Below are positions 19,714-39,723 of a stretch of 40,197 nt of DNA, piece by piece. Within the stretch, counting starts at the first letter, position 1, and each line of letters opens with the position of its first letter. The translations under genes were made by a program, and so were the position numbers. The notes under the pieces were generated by a model. That model was not told the origin of the DNA and made no database searches. It saw nothing but the letters and a program-made list of their open reading frames with translations. This DNA comes from Candidatus Magasanikbacteria bacterium RIFOXYD1_FULL_40_23 (GTDB taxonomy: Bacteria; Patescibacteriota; Patescibacteriia; Magasanikbacterales; GWA2-37-8): assembly GCA_001783215.1 (NCBI GenBank), contig MFRA01000005.1, positions 393,423 to 433,619 of the forward strand, read 5' to 3'.

Positions 19714-20952
19714 GTGAACATCATAAAAGAAATTCACAATGTTTGGAATATTGTGGGCCGTAATAAAGTGCGGTCGTTTTTAACCATGCTTGGCATTGTT
19801 ATAGGCATCATGTCTGTAATTGTTGTAATGTCTGTGGGAGCCGGCGCGCAAAGCCTAATCCTTAATCAGGTAAGTAGTCTGGGCTCAAATTTAGTCGGTA
19901 TTCTTCCTGGCCAATCCGAAGACGAAGGGCCTCCAGCTTCGGCTATGGGCATAGTAATTACCACTCTAAAGTACGAAGATATAAAATCCCTTGTAGGGCC
20001 CGAATTCCCTTATATAGTGGCTGCTACAGCCTATGTACGAGGCGTTGATACAGTTAATTGGGGTGATAATAAAACAGACACCAATTTTGTGGGCGTATCA
20101 GCGGCTTTGCCAGAAGTAGAAGATACCAATGTAAGTATCGGCAGGTTTTTTTCGGAAGAAGAAGAAAAAAGTTTGGCTAGAGTCGCAGTCTTGGGAAGTC
20201 AAACCGCCAAAGATTTATTTGAAGGTACAGATCCGATAGGAAAACAAATTAGAATTAAAAAAACCTCTTTTACAGTTATTGGAGTAATGGGAGAAAGAGG
20301 GAGTAGTGGTTTTCAAAATCAGGATAATCAAATTTATACACCCATTACTACTGCGCAAAAATTATTGCTCGGCATAGATTATGTTAGTTTCGGACGTGTA
20401 AAGGTAGACGGTGCAGAAAATGTAGATAAAACTGTAGAATATGTTAAGCAAGTTTTGCGAGAACGACATAAAATAACAAATCCGGAAGAGGATGATTTTT
20501 CTGTGCGTACAACCGCCCAAGGATTAGACGCTCTTACCAACATTACCAATGCGCTCAAAATTTTCTTGTCTGCGATTGCGGCCATTTCTCTAATTGTGGG
20601 CGGGATTGGAATTATGAACATTATGCTTGCGGCTGTGCAAGAAAGAACTAGAGAGATTGGTTTGCGCAAAGCAGTGGGCGCAAAAAACAGTAATATTATT
20701 ACCCAATTTCTGATTGAGACAGTGATGATTACTTTTATGGGCGCGCTGATGGGAATATTATTGGGAACTTTAATTTCTTTTGCTGCCGGTAAAGTTGCGC
20801 AAAGTTTAGGTTATCATTGGGATATAGTTGTTTCTTTGTCGTCTGTTTTGGCCGCTTGTGTAGTGGGTGTTAGTATTGGACTTGTGTTTGGTATAGTGCC
20901 AGCGCGCAGGGCTAGCAAATTAAACCCAATTGAAGCATTGCGATATGAATAG
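19714..20952 (+). CDS. ABC transporter permease (MacB/FtsX-like)
   Basis: NKVRSFLTMLGIVIGIMSVIVVMSVGAGAQ, MNIMLAAVQERTREIGLRKAVGAK; GTG start. Confidence 0.92.
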   Translation: MNIIKEIHNVWNIVGRNKVRSFLTMLGIVIGIMSVIVVMSVGAGAQSLILNQVSSLGSNLVGILPGQSEDEGPPASAMGIVITTLKYEDIKSLVGPEFPYIVAATAYVRGVDTVNWGDNKTDTNFVGVSAALPEVEDTNVSIGRFFSEEEEKSLARVAVLGSQTAKDLFEGTDPIGKQIRIKKTSFTVIGVMGERGSSGFQNQDNQIYTPITTAQKLLLGIDYVSFGRVKVDGAENVDKTVEYVKQVLRERHKITNPEEDDFSVRTTAQGLDALTNITNALKIFLSAIAAISLIVGGIGIMNIMLAAVQERTREIGLRKAVGAKNSNIITQFLIETVMITFMGALMGILLGTLISFAAGKVAQSLGYHWDIVVSLSSVLAACVVGVSIGLVFGIVPARRASKLNPIEALRYE

Positions 20953-22210
20953 TAATTTTTTAGATACAATTAAAGATAATTTAAAATTAGCTAGTCATTC
21001 TTTGCTTGCTCAAAAAACCAGATCGGTCCTGACTATTTTGGGTATCAGTATTGGTGTGGCAGTGGTAATTACCATTTTGGCAGCTGGACGTGGACTCGAT
21101 AAATTTATTATGAGTCAGTTAGAAATTTTTGGTTCCGACACTCTTAGCATAGAGGTGAAAATCCCTAACACCAAAGATACATCCACCGAAAATGCTTTTG
21201 GTCAGGCTACGGGTGTAACTATAACTACCTTAAAAAACTCAGACACAGACAATGTTAGTAAACATCCAAATATTGTAGCCGCTTATGGTTGGATGATTGG
21301 GCAGGCTGTAGTTACTTATCAAGGGCAAATAAAAACAGTTACTTTGTTTGGTCAAGGATACAATATGCCGGAGGTAGAAAAATTTTCTTTGTCAGAAGGT
21401 AGAATGTTTACCAAAGAAGAAGAGGATTCTCTTTCACAAATAGTAGTGCTTGGGTCGGTTGTAAAAGAAAAATTATTTGGTGATGACATTGCTTCGGGCA
21501 AAACTATTTATATAAAAGGTAAGCCATTTAAAGTTGCAGGTGTATCTACCAAGCGTGGGGCTACATTTGGTATGGATATGGATAATATGATAATCGTGCC
21601 AACCAAGACCATGCAAAAAAGAGTTTTGGGCATAGATTATATCCACAATATTATGGCCAAAATGAAAGACACAAGCATTTCCAAACAAACCGTAGAAGAA
21701 TTAAACGAAATTATTCGCGCCAACCACGATATTACCGATCCAAACAAAGATGATTTTACTATAAACACTATGGCCGAAGCGGTTTCCATTTTAGGTAGTG
21801 TGGTAAGCGGCATTACATTTTTGTTGGTGGCGCTTGTTTGCATATCGCTTGTGGTAGGCGGTGTTGGTATTATGAATATAATGTACGTATCTGTTTCGGA
21901 GCGAGTATTCGAAATTGGTTTGCGCAAAGCGCTTGGTGCAAAGGCTAGTGATATTTTGTGGCAATTTTTGTTAGAATCAATTCTGCTTACATCTATTGGC
22001 GGTGTGGTAGGTGTAGCTATGGGTGCGCTTATGGCTCTGGTAGTATATTTTGTGGCAGTTTCCAACAACTTTAATTGGGTTTATAGTATCCCGCTTTTTT
22101 CTATTTTGTTATCTGTTGGCTTCTCGGCATTTATCGGTGTTTTATTTGGCATTTATCCGGCCAGAAAGGCCGCTGCGCTTAACCCGATTGAGGCGTTGAG
22201 GAGGGAGTAA
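20945..22210 (+). CDS. ABC transporter permease (MacB/FtsX-like), second paralogue
   Basis: KTRSVLTILGISIGVAVVITILAAGRG, MNIMYVSVSERVFEIGLRKALGAK; ATG at 20945 overlaps previous stop by 8 nt. Confidence 0.92.
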   Translation: MNSNFLDTIKDNLKLASHSLLAQKTRSVLTILGISIGVAVVITILAAGRGLDKFIMSQLEIFGSDTLSIEVKIPNTKDTSTENAFGQATGVTITTLKNSDTDNVSKHPNIVAAYGWMIGQAVVTYQGQIKTVTLFGQGYNMPEVEKFSLSEGRMFTKEEEDSLSQIVVLGSVVKEKLFGDDIASGKTIYIKGKPFKVAGVSTKRGATFGMDMDNMIIVPTKTMQKRVLGIDYIHNIMAKMKDTSISKQTVEELNEIIRANHDITDPNKDDFTINTMAEAVSILGSVVSGITFLLVALVCISLVVGGVGIMNIMYVSVSERVFEIGLRKALGAKASDILWQFLLESILLTSIGGVVGVAMGALMALVVYFVAVSNNFNWVYSIPLFSILLSVGFSAFIGVLFGIYPARKAAALNPIEALRRE

Positions 22211-22259
22211 AAAAAAGCCGACGGTCTCTTTGGTTATAAATAACCATTGAAACCGTCGG
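22209..22259 (-). terminator. Intrinsic terminator following the tmRNA-like gene
   Basis: Reverse complement CCGACGGT...GGTTAT/ATAACC...ACCGTCGG followed by CTTTTTTT. Confidence 0.8.
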
Positions 22260-22264
22260 TAATG

Positions 22265-22429
22265 TGGTGGAGCTGGTCATGAATTGAACATGACATTCTA
22301 AGCATTGATCGCCACTAGCGATAGTTATCGCTAGCCCCAGAACTCCTCGGCTGGTTCCACCGTCGGAACCCTTTGCAAACCAGCGCAGGAGGCAGCGTGC
22401 TTAGAGTTTTTCCGTTAAACTACAGCCCC
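22265..22429 (-). ncRNA. Compact tmRNA-like / tRNA-like RNA with alanine-type acceptor and encoded CCA
   Basis: 5' GGGGCTG pairs with CAGCTCC-A-CCA incl. G3-U70; T-arm GTCATG-TTCAATT-CATGAC; P2-like stem TCTAAGCA/TGCTTAGA; promoter TTGACA-N17-TATCAT; terminator downstream. Confidence 0.7.
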
Positions 22430-22444
22430 AAATGTCTGGGGAGG

Positions 22445-22473
22445 ATGATACCACAAACCCCTTTATTTGTCAA
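22445..22473 (-). promoter_or_regulatory. Promoter of the tmRNA-like gene
   Basis: Reverse complement TTGACA - 17 bp - TATCAT, 15 nt upstream of the predicted mature 5' end. Confidence 0.7.
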
Positions 22474-22540: not shown

Positions 22541-24343
22541 ATGACTGACACCCAAGCAATAAAAGACAGATTGGACATTGTACAGATAATTGGCGAATAT
22601 GTAAGGCTCAAAAAAGCCGGCATAAACTGGAAAGCCAATTGTCCATTTCACAACGAAAAATCTCCTTCATTTATGGTTCAACCAGAAAAGCAATTCTGGC
22701 ATTGTTTTGGTTGTAGTAAGGGTGGAGACGTCTTTTCTTTCTTACAAGAAATGGAAGGTGTAGATTTTAGCGAAGCTCTAAAAATTTTGGCAGATCGTGC
22801 CGGTGTAAAATTAGACAGTTATGCCAGTGAAGTAAACAAAAGCCAGAAAAATAGAATTATAGAAATAAATAATAAAGCTACTTATTTTTTTAATCACTTT
22901 TTGTCGGAGATGCCGGCGGCCGAAGCAGCTAGAGATTATTTGAAGCGCCGCGAACTAACTACCGAAACAATTACCGAATGGCAAGTTGGTTTTATTCCAG
23001 AGCAATGGGATTTACTTACAAAATATTTATTAAACAAAGGCAATAGCATTGATGATTTACTGGCTTCTGGCTTAGCTATAAAAAAAGACGGTGGTGGATT
23101 CTACGATCGTTTTCGCGGCCGCATAATGTTTCCTATTTGGGATGCGCACGGCAATGTGGTAGGTTTTACCGGACGCATACTGGTAGAAACAGAAAAATCA
23201 GGCGGTAAATATGTAAACACTCCCCAGACTTTGGTATTTGATAAATCTAGGCTTTTGTATGGTTTAAATAAAGCCAAGACAGAGATAAAAGCCAAAGATT
23301 TTACAGTATTGGTAGAGGGCCAAATGGATGTAATTGCCTGCCATCAGGCAGGTATGAAAAACGTGGTGGCGTCTTCGGGTACAGCGCTTACTATGGAGCA
23401 GATTAAATTATTAAAAAGATATTCCAATAATATTGCAATTGCTTTTGATGCAGATGCGGCCGGGCAAAATGCTGCCAAGCGCGGTATAGATTTGGCCCTG
23501 GAGCAGGGAATGAGTATAAAAATTATTCAAATTCCACCGGGTGCTGGCAAAGATGCAGACGAATGTATAAAAAAAGATAAAGATGTATGGTTTAAAGCGG
23601 TAGAGAGTGCCAAAGAGGTAATGGATTGGTATTTTACTAATGCGGTTGTGGGGGTAAATAAAAATGATCCAAAACAAAAACAGAAAATTGCCGAAGTTCT
23701 TTTGGCCGAAATAGCTCGTCTTCCATATGCGGTAGAACGGGATCATTGGCTTAAAAAATTAGCAGATGAGATAGGTGTTGATCGCTCTGTTTTGGTAGCA
23801 GAAATGAGTAGGGTAGTAGCTCAGGCAAAAAGGTATCCAGACAATAGTCATGCCAATTTAGCCAGTAAGCCCGCTAGCCCTAGCATAGCCGCTGCAAGCC
23901 AGGAAAATTGGGAAGAAAAGGGTAAGATTCACCTGCTTGCCGAAAACTTTTTTGCTCTGCTTTTAAAGTTTCCTCAGCTGTTCGCCCAGCATGCCCCTGG
24001 TCTAAGGTCCGAATTCTTTGAGCATACCCCCCTGGCTGGGCTTTACGAGTCGCTAAAAAAGCACTATAATGGCAATATAGATATAATGGTGGTTAAAAAC
24101 AGTTTAACCAAGGAAGAGCAATCTGCCATTGATATTTTAGTATTAAAAACAGACAAAGATTATAGCGGTTTTGATGCCCAGCAAACCAGCAAAGAATTAT
24201 CTATTTTGCTCGGCGCCATAAAAAGTGAGTGGCAAAAAAATAAACGTCAGAAACTATTTGTGGAATTAAAAGAAGCAGAAAAAAACGGAGATCCGGAAGC
24301 TGTGCAGAAAATTCTGAAAGAAATAATGGAATTAGAAAAATAA
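22541..24343 (+). CDS. dnaG: DNA primase
   Basis: CPFHNEKSPSFMVQPEKQFWHCFGCSKGGDVFSF zinc motif, VVGFTGR, VEGQMDVIACHQAGMKNVVASSGTALT TOPRIM. Confidence 0.96.
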   Translation: MTDTQAIKDRLDIVQIIGEYVRLKKAGINWKANCPFHNEKSPSFMVQPEKQFWHCFGCSKGGDVFSFLQEMEGVDFSEALKILADRAGVKLDSYASEVNKSQKNRIIEINNKATYFFNHFLSEMPAAEAARDYLKRRELTTETITEWQVGFIPEQWDLLTKYLLNKGNSIDDLLASGLAIKKDGGGFYDRFRGRIMFPIWDAHGNVVGFTGRILVETEKSGGKYVNTPQTLVFDKSRLLYGLNKAKTEIKAKDFTVLVEGQMDVIACHQAGMKNVVASSGTALTMEQIKLLKRYSNNIAIAFDADAAGQNAAKRGIDLALEQGMSIKIIQIPPGAGKDADECIKKDKDVWFKAVESAKEVMDWYFTNAVVGVNKNDPKQKQKIAEVLLAEIARLPYAVERDHWLKKLADEIGVDRSVLVAEMSRVVAQAKRYPDNSHANLASKPASPSIAAASQENWEEKGKIHLLAENFFALLLKFPQLFAQHAPGLRSEFFEHTPLAGLYESLKKHYNGNIDIMVVKNSLTKEEQSAIDILVLKTDKDYSGFDAQQTSKELSILLGAIKSEWQKNKRQKLFVELKEAEKNGDPEAVQKILKEIMELEK

Positions 24344-36003: not shown

Positions 36004-39000
36004 ATGACTGATGTATTAAAATCCGTAAAAAAAATCTTTACGGTTAGCGTTGTCGGTGCCACTATGTCGTGGTCCGTTGGCGTTTCAGCTTTGTTGCCAA
36101 TGGTTGCGAGCGCAGCTGTTTGCCCAACACTCGCTGCTGGCGACATGATCAAGGTATCTGGTAAAGCAGCTATCTACTCTGTCGACAAAATGAACAAAGT
36201 TTTATATTTCCCTTCTGGAGATGAATTCAAGAGTTGGAATGAAAACAATTCTTATGGCGGTTATGTAACCGTTACTCAAGAATGTTTTGATTCTTTGGCA
36301 GTTCCTAGTGCCTACCCAGGTGCTGTTAACTACCGCCCAGGTTCATACGTTGTAAAGAGACCTTCCTCTGATCAATTGTATGTTGTATTACCAGGAAACA
36401 AACTTTCCAAAGTTACTCCTGCCGACGCTGCTCTATTATACGGAGCTTCATACAAAGTAATGACTGTTGCTGACGCTTTCTGGCCTCACTACGTATTAAG
36501 AGGTGCAGACATCGCCGGTATGGTTCATGAAGGTATGTTGGTAAGTAATGATGGCAAAACATGGTATGTTGATGCTGCTAATGTTCTACGCGAAGTTACT
36601 GCTACAGGTATGACCGCAAACAGATTTAAAGCTGCTTTCGTTCACACTGTTCCAGCTTCTGCTTTAGTAGGAACATCAGTTGGTACTTCACTTGCCGCCA
36701 TGGAATCTGTTCTTACAAACAGAACACAAGATGGAGCTATTTCCGCTCCAGCCCCAGTAGTTGGTGGTAACCTAAGTGTTACTCTAGCTGCTGACAACCC
36801 AGCTGCTGCAAACCTTGCTGACGGTTCTGCTTACAACGCTGTGTTGAAAGTAAACCTAAGCGCTGGTGCAGCTACTCAAGTTACAGGATTAACCCTAACT
36901 AAGACTGGTCTTATTTCTAATACAAATATTACCGGCGTTAGTGTTTGGGACGCTGCTGGCAACCGCCATGGCGATGTTATGACTTCCTTAACTTCTGACA
37001 ACAAAATCACTCTAAGCTTCGGATCTTACCCAGTACTTGTTGGTGCTGGTGCATCCGAAACTTTGACAGTTAAAGTAAATATTTCTGGAGCTGCTAATTC
37101 CGGCTTAGTTGGATTTAGTGTTGCAGCTGCTACAGACGTTGTAAGCAACGGAACTGTTAGTGGTTCTTTCCCAATTACAGGAAACCAGATGGCTATCATT
37201 GATGGTAATGCTTCTTTAGCTTCTACCACCATTTCTGGCCAATCAGTTGGCGGAGCTACAACTCAACCAGCTAGCACTGCTTCAGGTAACTTACAAATTG
37301 GTGACTTACAAAAAGAAGTTGCTAAATTTAGATTTACCGAAAACAGTGGTAACGAAGATGTTCAAGTTTCAAGAGTAACTCTTTTCGCTCAAGGAACTAT
37401 CCAAGATGCCGACTTAGCTAACATCAGTGTTTATGCACCAGATGGAACTTTGCTTGGTAATGGCGGAAGTTTGAGTGGTCGTTATGTTACTATTTCATTT
37501 GCATCTCCTTACACTGTACCAAAGAGTACAAATCGTGATCTAACTGTAAAGACTGACGTTGTAAATGGTTCAACACGCAACTTCAGATTCCAAATTCAGA
37601 GTGATTACGATGTAATGATCAAGGGTGTATCCACCGGATTCTACATTTTGCCTGCTTCATTCAGCGTTGTTTCCAGCACAAGTGGTTGGTTCAACATGGG
37701 TGCCGGCTCATTAACCTTAAACAAGACAGTAAGTTCTCCAGCTGGAAACATTTCCGCTGGTGCTTCTAACATTGTTTTGGCTAAATTTGATGTAAAGGCT
37801 GTTGGTGAATCCATGGAATTACGCAAGATGGGTCTTGGTGTTAACTGGGGTCTTACAGGTCCTCACACCAACCTCACAGGCAATGTAGTTGTTAGAGACG
37901 CTACAGATGGTACAGTTTACTTAACCGTAGCTGCTTCCACTGCTGCTCTATATACAAACGGAACACAACATAACCTATCAAGCTACATCAACCTTGCTTC
38001 AAATCAAACCAAGGTATTAGAAGTAGTTGGTAGTGTAAACTCCACTGCTACATCAGGTGTAAGCTATCAGGTACAAATTGGTAACTTCTATGCAAAGAGA
38101 CTTTCTTCATTAGATTTTGCTGATAACCTACCTACATCTGGAAACACCAGTACATCTGCTAACCAGTTAACAGTTAACGCAACTTCCTTAACTTGTTACA
38201 AAGATACAGCTATGGGTAACGTAACTCGCGCTCCTGGAGCAACTGCAGTTATCGGTCAGTACATTTGTACTGCTGGTACTTCTGAAGATGTTCGCTTGAG
38301 CAACGTTTCTGTAGCATTTGGTCAACCTTCAGGATCTGCTCCTGCAATGTTCCAAAACATGTCTCTTTGGAACGGATCTACACAATTAGGCACAACTCTA
38401 AGCACTGTTGCATCCTCATCTAATGCTTACAACTTTGACTTGACTGTTCCTAAGAACCAAACTGTAACATTACAATTGAAAGCCCTTATCGTTTCTGGAG
38501 CTTCCGGAACAGTTTCCTCTTCTCTTGCCTCTTATGCATATAACGGCAAAGACAGTGGAACAGCTGGTAGTTCTACAGATGTGGTAAACGGACAAACAGT
38601 TGTTGTTGGAGCTGGTAACCTAAACATTACTTCCGTATCTGACGCTACAACCATTTCTAGAGTATATGGTCCAGGTCAAACAGGAGTACAATTAGGTAAA
38701 TTCAAATTCGCTGCTGCAAATGATGACGTAACTTTGAGTAAGTTAACTCTTACTGCTCGTCGTCCAGATGTTGGCGGTACAGACCAAACTACTTTGGGTA
38801 CATTTGGAAGCTTGTCATTGTATGATGGCTCCACATTATTGGCCTCTGGTAGTTATGTAAACGGTGATGTTGTATTCACCGGCTTTAGCTCTACAGTTGC
38901 TATGGATAGTTACAAGATTCTCACTTTGAAGGGTACAATCAACGCTTCTGGTGTAATCACAAGTAACTCTACCACTGCTTTCGCTGTAAAGAGCGACAGT

Positions 39001-39723
39001 AACACAGACTTGGAAGCTAGATCAGCTGCTGGTGCCTTACTTGGTACTGCAGATGTAAACTACAACACCGCAAGTAACGCTGGTGCTGCTGAAACCAGAT
39101 TAGCCACATCCACAGCTTATATGTTCCACGATGCTTACCCAACAGTAGCTGTTGGATCAGTAGGAACTGCTTTGCCTTTGGATTCCTTGGCTAAAGTACT
39201 CAAATTCACAATTACCAACCCTGGTACTCGTGATTTGAGAGTTGGTTCAACAACAATCGCATTCAACGTTTCTGGTTTAGTTGGTGGCGTAGACACTGGC
39301 CTTGCTAGTGGTACTATCCAAGATGTTAGATTGTACGAAGATAACGGATCTGGCGGCCTAGGTACTTACCTTGCTAACAGAACTGTTACTATCGGCACAT
39401 CTACAGCTAACCCATACAGTATCGACTTTAACGCTGACTTTGATCAGAACAGCTTATTGGCCAACTTCGTAGTTGCTCCAGGAGCTTCTCGAACATTGAT
39501 CGTTACTGCCGACACTACCCGCATGTTGAACGCAAAGACTACCGGAAGTGTAACACTATCCGCTAAGATCTCTGGTTCTACAGGTTGGAGTGGTACAGCT
39601 TGGAACACAGGTAACTTGTTCTACTTCTACACACCAGTAGGAGGAAGCGAGAACGATGCTCCAGGTTACTCTGCATCAGACTCTTACGATGTATCAGGGG
39701 CAACCTTGAACTACACCCTCTAA
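36004..39723 (+). CDS. S-layer-like secreted surface protein
   Basis: Signal peptide ending LPMVASAA, 1239 aa, Ser/Thr/Ala/Gly-rich beta repeats, very low Cys, own terminator. Confidence 0.75.
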   Translation: MTDVLKSVKKIFTVSVVGATMSWSVGVSALLPMVASAAVCPTLAAGDMIKVSGKAAIYSVDKMNKVLYFPSGDEFKSWNENNSYGGYVTVTQECFDSLAVPSAYPGAVNYRPGSYVVKRPSSDQLYVVLPGNKLSKVTPADAALLYGASYKVMTVADAFWPHYVLRGADIAGMVHEGMLVSNDGKTWYVDAANVLREVTATGMTANRFKAAFVHTVPASALVGTSVGTSLAAMESVLTNRTQDGAISAPAPVVGGNLSVTLAADNPAAANLADGSAYNAVLKVNLSAGAATQVTGLTLTKTGLISNTNITGVSVWDAAGNRHGDVMTSLTSDNKITLSFGSYPVLVGAGASETLTVKVNISGAANSGLVGFSVAAATDVVSNGTVSGSFPITGNQMAIIDGNASLASTTISGQSVGGATTQPASTASGNLQIGDLQKEVAKFRFTENSGNEDVQVSRVTLFAQGTIQDADLANISVYAPDGTLLGNGGSLSGRYVTISFASPYTVPKSTNRDLTVKTDVVNGSTRNFRFQIQSDYDVMIKGVSTGFYILPASFSVVSSTSGWFNMGAGSLTLNKTVSSPAGNISAGASNIVLAKFDVKAVGESMELRKMGLGVNWGLTGPHTNLTGNVVVRDATDGTVYLTVAASTAALYTNGTQHNLSSYINLASNQTKVLEVVGSVNSTATSGVSYQVQIGNFYAKRLSSLDFADNLPTSGNTSTSANQLTVNATSLTCYKDTAMGNVTRAPGATAVIGQYICTAGTSEDVRLSNVSVAFGQPSGSAPAMFQNMSLWNGSTQLGTTLSTVASSSNAYNFDLTVPKNQTVTLQLKALIVSGASGTVSSSLASYAYNGKDSGTAGSSTDVVNGQTVVVGAGNLNITSVSDATTISRVYGPGQTGVQLGKFKFAAANDDVTLSKLTLTARRPDVGGTDQTTLGTFGSLSLYDGSTLLASGSYVNGDVVFTGFSSTVAMDSYKILTLKGTINASGVITSNSTTAFAVKSDSNTDLEARSAAGALLGTADVNYNTASNAGAAETRLATSTAYMFHDAYPTVAVGSVGTALPLDSLAKVLKFTITNPGTRDLRVGSTTIAFNVSGLVGGVDTGLASGTIQDVRLYEDNGSGGLGTYLANRTVTIGTSTANPYSIDFNADFDQNSLLANFVVAPGASRTLIVTADTTRMLNAKTTGSVTLSAKISGSTGWSGTAWNTGNLFYFYTPVGGSENDAPGYSASDSYDVSGATLNYTL

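What the first reader, a model, noticed from the sequence alone, without database searches (positions are those of the whole stretch)
22265..22429. 165-nt tmRNA-like RNA lacking a normal mRNA-like domain
Minus-strand RNA with acceptor GGGGCTG/CAGCTCC-A-CCA including the G3-U70 alanine identity pair, a 6-bp T-stem with TTCAATT loop, D-arm-like GTTT-AACGGAA-AAAC, and an 8-bp P2-like stem TCTAAGCA/TGCTTAGA. It is expressed from its own promoter (TTGACA-N17-TATCAT) and has a terminator. The acceptor matches what I recall of E. coli tmRNA, but the space between the P2 arms is only ~95 nt, with one long hairpin (CTCCT-GC-GCTGGTT...AACCAGC-CG-AGGAG) and one short hairpin (CTAGCGA/TCGCTAG). No usual tag ending in ALAA is visible; the only short frame noted is GCT AGC GAT AAC TAT CGC TAG (ASDNYR-stop). 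Bacterial tmRNAs are usually ~300-400 nt. Unlike the two tRNAs here, CCA is genome-encoded. Either a drastically reduced tmRNA or a new tRNA-like RNA.
Basis: partly seen in the sequence, partly recalled or inferred. Interest (0 to 1): 0.85.

Follow-up and report, generated by a model that had tools for sequence, protein, structure and literature searches.

The report
Non-decoding tRNA-like RNA in Parcubacteria
A small bacterium carries, besides its normal tRNAs and normal tmRNA, an extra tRNA-shaped RNA whose decoding loop is replaced by a large folded insert; a related species keeps it at the same place with matched base-pair changes, so it is probably a real RNA with a job outside translation, although that job is not known.

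Summary
The RNA is real at the stated place (22265-22429, minus strand) and folds as described. It is not a reduced tmRNA: the same genome has a canonical ssrA right after smpB. It is not an intron-interrupted tRNA in any form that I could test: the one missing isoacceptor, tRNA-Thr(GGU), lies elsewhere, split by a group I-like intron, and no splice that gives a valid anticodon loop is shared with the homologue. A homologue exists in one other species of the genus, G001 (VMGB01000001.1, 'Parcubacteria group bacterium Gr01-1014_13'). It sits divergent from dnaG as here and keeps all 22 cloverleaf pairs, four of them by changes on both sides, with an equally strong promoter. Both have a 7+6 (13-bp) acceptor/T branch, against 7+5 in all ordinary tRNAs of four genomes. 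The G3-U70 pair, and with it the alanine identity, is not conserved. Two other species of the genus, and several hundred more distant genomes, gave no member. Best reading: a non-decoding, tRNA-mimic small RNA with a tRNA(Ala)-like body, ancestral to the genus and lost twice; its molecular target is unknown.

The parts
22265..22429 (-). tRNA-like RNA, 165 nt including encoded CCA
   Evidence: sequence and fold; homologue in G001, L055:9598-9728
22445..22473 (-). promoter TTGACA-N17-TATCAT (11/12, TG before the -10)
   Evidence: G001 has TTGACA-N17-TATAGT (11/12) at the matching place
22423..22429 (-). acceptor 5' strand GGGGCTG
   Evidence: pairs with 22269-22275; same in G001 except position 3 (A)
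22269..22275 (-). acceptor 3' strand CAGCTCC
   Evidence: identical in G001
22406..22420 (-). D-arm GTTT-AACGGAA-AAAC
   Evidence: all four pairs kept in G001; loop keeps G18G19
22398..22405 (-). anticodon-position stem, 5' strand TCTAAGCA
   Evidence: outer 5 bp kept in G001, one pair changed on both sides
22297..22304 (-). anticodon-position stem, 3' strand TGCTTAGA
   Evidence: as above
22305..22397 (-). 93-nt branched insert (long hairpin plus short hairpin) in place of the anticodon loop
   Evidence: predicted fold; z -2.0 when only the insert is shuffled; the G001 insert is unrelated in sequence but also branched
22276..22294 (-). T-arm with 6-bp stem GTCATG-TTCAATT-CATGAC
   Evidence: three pairs changed on both sides and one on one side in G001, none broken; the ordinary tRNAs of the genus are 7+5
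22265..22267 (-). encoded CCA
   Evidence: not encoded in G001
22209..22260 (-). terminator hairpin ACCGACGGT...ACCGTCGGC with T-run
   Evidence: sequence and the long stem shown in the chance MIR774 alignment; the simple terminator scan does not list it because its loop rule is too short

Best explanation
A stand-alone gene for a non-decoding, tRNA-like small RNA. Shown by sequence: strong promoter; a tRNA body with T8, A14, G18G19 and TTCAA elbow signals; no anticodon loop, which is replaced by a branched insert; a 13-bp (7+6) acceptor/T branch; a homologue in a second species at the same place. Inferred: the transcript is trimmed like a tRNA by RNase P and RNase Z and carries CCA, so that it looks like a tRNA to proteins that read the acceptor and elbow. 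It should not decode, because it has no anticodon and its acceptor branch is one pair longer than in the other tRNAs. The fast-evolving insert is then either the effector part or simply a block to ribosomal use. Most likely it acts outside translation as a tRNA mimic, occupying or scaffolding a tRNA-handling protein. It probably arose from a duplicated tRNA of the alanine type. It was present in the ancestor of this genus and was lost twice. Confidence is for the non-decoding tRNA-like RNA with a function; the mimic-of-a-handling-protein step alone is about 0.35.
For: Homologue in G001, divergent from dnaG as here. 22/22 pairs kept, 4 changed on both sides; sliding the partners gives 31-52% pairing and 0-1 such pairs. 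Near-consensus promoter 12-15 nt upstream in both. Both fold better than shuffles, z -3.5 and -4.0. ARAGORN calls a tRNA in both bodies once the insert is replaced by a normal loop, and none with the insert in normal mode. 13-bp branch in both, no T-stem above 5 bp in 183 ordinary tRNAs. Among the best outside matches to the body model, tRNA-Ala genes of other Patescibacteria are the commonest. A full tRNA set and tmRNA exist without it.
Against: Only two members are known, so covariation rests on one comparison (38 of 500 shuffles reach the observed score). G002 and G003 of the same genus lack it at dnaG and gave no hit elsewhere, so it is dispensable. There is no expression evidence. The insert is not alignable between the two species. 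No partner gene identifies the function.
Confidence: 0.6

Rival explanations
1. A decaying tRNA pseudogene with an inserted stretch, still transcribed but without function.
For: Only two of four species of the genus have it; the insert is unalignable; G001 has a second odd tRNA gene (Val-AAC without G18G19) right behind it.
Against: All 22 pairs intact in both species, four with changes on both sides; elbow signals and a near-consensus promoter kept in both; the same unusual 7+6 branch in both.
Confidence: 0.22
2. A functional tRNA interrupted by a short intron of an unknown kind.
For: The insert sits at the place of the anticodon loop; tRNA introns occur in these genomes (tRNA-Thr GGU); ARAGORN in intron mode reads the window copy as tRNA-Leu(CAA) with a 90-nt intron.
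Against: The same mode finds nothing in G001 at default score, and my reading of the sequence finds no splice that leaves U33 there; Leu(CAA) exists as an ordinary gene in all four genomes; inserts of 99 and 68 nt are too short for a group I intron; the 13-bp acceptor/T branch would remain after splicing.
Confidence: 0.09
3. A drastically reduced tmRNA.
For: Alanine-type acceptor with G3-U70 and a TTCAA T-loop in the window copy.
Against: Canonical ssrA with tag reading frame beside smpB; no match to any tmRNA model; a D-stem is present; no shared tag frame; G3-U70 replaced by A3-U70 in G001.
Confidence: 0.03
4. A bacterial Y RNA, that is a tRNA mimic bound by a Ro/Rsr protein.
For: Bacterial Y RNA superposes on tRNA with a circular permutation (PMC11472068), so tRNA mimicry plus an extra stem domain is a known design.
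Against: No TROVE/Ro protein in any of the four genomes; here the 5' and 3' ends form the acceptor, with no permutation; no Rfam match.
Confidence: 0.03

Closest known systems
tRNA-Other of Bacillus cereus (pseudo-tRNA, PMC3399842)
   Same: [quoted passage not shown] its deletion does not slow growth in rich medium.
   Different: tRNA-Other keeps a Trp anticodon; here the anticodon loop is replaced by a branched insert and the T-stem has 6 bp.
tmRNA (ssrA, RF00023)
   Same: Alanine-type acceptor in the window copy, TTCAA T-loop, long stem in place of the anticodon arm.
   Different: No mRNA-like domain or tag, D-stem present, 13-bp branch; a true ssrA exists in the same genome.
Bacterial Y RNA (YrlA)
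   Same: tRNA mimicry joined to an extra stem domain.
   Different: Circularly permuted against tRNA, and works with a Ro protein; neither holds here.
Pseudo-tRNAs used in peptidoglycan synthesis (staphylococcal tRNA-Gly; general knowledge, class named in PMC3399842)
   Same: tRNA-like RNAs kept for use outside the ribosome.
   Different: Those are ordinary-sized, charged tRNAs; here the alanine identity pair is not conserved between the two members.
Selenocysteine tRNA (general knowledge)
   Same: 13-bp acceptor/T branch.
   Different: Bacterial tRNA-Sec is 8+5 with a long D-stem, long variable arm and UCA anticodon; here 7+6, short variable region, no anticodon.

Membership tests
tmRNA | Match to a tmRNA covariance model | tested here: not met
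   no hit at gathering score or at E up to 10
tmRNA | It is the ssrA of the genome | tested here: not met
   ssrA at G000:C1:207275-207671 after smpB
tmRNA | mRNA-like domain with conserved tag frame | tested here: not met
   ASDNYR frame is one side of a hairpin; no counterpart in G001
tmRNA | SmpB binding and alanylation | not testable with these tools
   G3-U70 present in the window copy, A3-U70 in G001
tRNA with intron | A needed isoacceptor is otherwise missing | tested here: not met
   every amino acid is served; Thr(GGU) found with its own intron
tRNA with intron | Splice leaving a valid 7-nt anticodon loop in both homologues | tested here: not met
   Leu(CAA) in G000 only, nothing at default score in G001
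tRNA with intron | Insert matches a known intron family | tested here: inconclusive
   no Rfam match up to E 10, but Rfam also missed the group I-like intron of tRNA-Thr; length alone argues against group I
Y RNA (YrlA) | Ro/TROVE protein in the genome | tested here: not met
   none in four genomes
Y RNA (YrlA) | Circularly permuted tRNA topology | tested here: not met
   5' and 3' ends form the acceptor
tRNA-like / pseudo-tRNA RNAs (functional class) | tRNA body fold | tested here: met
tRNA-like / pseudo-tRNA RNAs (functional class) | No decoding anticodon | tested here: met
   99- and 68-nt inserts between the five conserved stem pairs in place of the loop
tRNA-like / pseudo-tRNA RNAs (functional class) | Not on polysomes; a role outside translation | not testable with these tools
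   needs experiment

The most novel reading that the evidence does not exclude
A new, lineage-restricted class of tRNA-bodied regulatory RNA with a 13-bp acceptor/T branch, matured by the tRNA machinery, in which the anticodon arm has become a freely evolving effector domain that acts on a tRNA-handling enzyme or serves as an aminoacyl carrier outside the ribosome.
Probability: 0.2. Interest if true: 0.75.

Novelty: new variant of a known kind. Interest (0 to 1): 0.5.

Why it matters
If the RNA is made and stable, it would be a second tRNA-shaped non-decoding RNA beside tmRNA in a minimal-genome Parcubacterium, with an acceptor branch one pair longer than that of any ordinary tRNA in its genus. 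It would show how a tRNA gene is turned into a non-decoding RNA, in a lineage that discards most dispensable genes. Ordinary tRNA finders and Rfam miss it, so others may exist.

Tried and rejected
Reduced tmRNA: rejected by ssrA plus smpB. Hidden tRNA-Thr(GGU): the gene's absence from the first inventories of G000 and G001 mirrored the RNA's presence, but Thr(GGU) was found split by a 187-188-nt group I-like intron in both, so the mirror pattern says nothing about this RNA. Other splicing: no shared valid anticodon loop. Y RNA: no Ro. Mobile element or repeat: one copy in the genome, no match in phages, plasmids or viral contigs. More members: covariance models over 196, 39 and 389 genomes (overlapping sets) gave only ordinary tRNAs besides the two; pattern searches gave the two plus tRNAs and chance matches. 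Caution: the first look of the genome search cuts long candidates (it split the window copy in two), so distant members may be missed. Literature searches found no described RNA of this kind, but the library is partial.

Full report
The window is part of a 1.07-Mb genome in 8 contigs. The relative G001 carries the name 'Parcubacteria group bacterium Gr01-1014_13' (VMGB01000001.1), so the genus belongs to the Parcubacteria. The RNA lies in a 330-base gap between a MacB/FtsX-type permease gene (20930-22210, +) and dnaG (22541-24343, +), and is read towards the permease gene.

Observation. The strand folds at -63.3 kcal/mol, z -3.5. ARAGORN and Rfam see nothing.

Not a tmRNA. The genome holds a full ssrA of about 397 nt directly after smpB, with a tag frame. 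The RNA has a D-stem, which tmRNA lacks (general knowledge), and no tag frame that the homologue shares.

Homologue. A DNA search of 147 relatives found one, in G001 of the same genus. Read in full (L055:9598-9728) it has acceptor GGAGCTG/CAGCTCC, the same D-arm with two loop changes, TCTAG/CTAGA, and T-arm GCTCTG-TTCAAAC-CGGAGC. Its promoter is TTGACA-N17-TATAGT. It too is divergent from dnaG (with a 102-aa reading frame between them), and the neighbouring CCA-enzyme and secretion-ATPase genes correspond. All 22 pairs form in both, four with changes on both sides and two on one side; sliding the partners by 1-3 columns gives 31-52% paired and at most one such pair. With two sequences this is suggestive rather than final: 38 of 500 shuffles reach the score.

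Structure. The insert between the five conserved anticodon-stem pairs is 99 nt here and 68 nt in G001, unrelated in sequence. In both, the predicted fold is a stem that branches into a longer and a shorter hairpin. When only the insert is shuffled, the real sequence folds somewhat better (z -2.0 and -2.4), and shuffles give the branched form in 34% and 11%, so the shared topology is weak evidence. Both RNAs have seven acceptor pairs and six T pairs. Among 183 ordinary tRNAs of the four genomes none was scored above five T pairs (four initiator-Met genes were scored 4, which I read as an effect of their mismatched first base). A 13-bp branch is otherwise typical of selenocysteine tRNA (general knowledge) and is a reason to doubt normal ribosomal use. 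Replacing the insert with a normal loop makes ARAGORN call a tRNA in both.

Origin and spread. The outside matches of covariance models built from the two bodies are ordinary tRNA genes of other Patescibacteria, tRNA-Ala the commonest and best, with Arg, Asn, Val and His. The window copy has G3-U70 and A73 like the tRNA-Ala genes of this genome. G001 has A3-U70, so alanine charging is not a conserved trait. In the DnaG tree G001 branches first, then G002, then G000 with G003 (the G000-G003 pairing is only moderately supported). G002 and G003 lack the RNA at dnaG and gave no hit elsewhere. The simplest history is presence in the ancestor of the genus and two losses.

Is it a hidden, needed tRNA? 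The first tRNA inventories of the four species showed Thr(GGU) in G002 and G003 but not in G000 and G001, the exact reverse of the RNA. A search with that tRNA found both halves in G000 and G001, separated by 188 and 187 nt. The intervening sequence is closely alike in the two and carries group I-like core sequences such as AAGATACAGTC and a final G (my reading, since Rfam gave no group I match). So Thr(GGU) is present and is not this RNA. For the RNA itself, the only splice that leaves U33 in the window copy gives Leu(CAA), which exists as a normal gene; in G001 there is none at default score.

Mechanism. Shown: gene anatomy, predicted fold, conservation in two species, absence of an anticodon loop, 13-bp branch. 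Inferred: transcription, tRNA-type end processing, stability, and action as a tRNA mimic on a tRNA-handling protein. The nearest documented case of a pseudo-tRNA with a role outside translation is tRNA-Other of Bacillus cereus (PMC3399842). Y RNAs are made unlikely by the lack of a Ro protein. A transcribed pseudogene remains the strongest rival.

Noticed in passing
G000:C8:86953-87214 (L213) and G001:C4:342879-343139 (L212): tRNA-Thr(GGU) is split after the anticodon by a 187-188-nt group I-like intron in G000 and G001, but is uninterrupted in G002 and G003. Rfam did not report the intron up to E 0.1.
   Followed up: partly
L055:9762-9839 (+), G001: A second odd tRNA gene, called Val-AAC, with no GG in the D-loop, lies directly behind the tRNA-like RNA and before a terminator; it resembles a diverged copy of tRNA-Val(UAC).
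   Followed up: partly
G000:C1:207275-207671 (L001): The genome's canonical tmRNA has a long predicted tag, ANLLSKAKVAVANLFAVRAFAPVMA, which does not end in ALAA.
   Followed up: no
G001 tRNA set: tRNA-Tyr(GUA) was not found in G001 by Rfam or ARAGORN, although the genome is rated complete; an intron-split gene is possible.
   Followed up: no
window 36004-39723 (+): A 1239-aa reading frame with no Pfam match at E 0.001.
   Followed up: no
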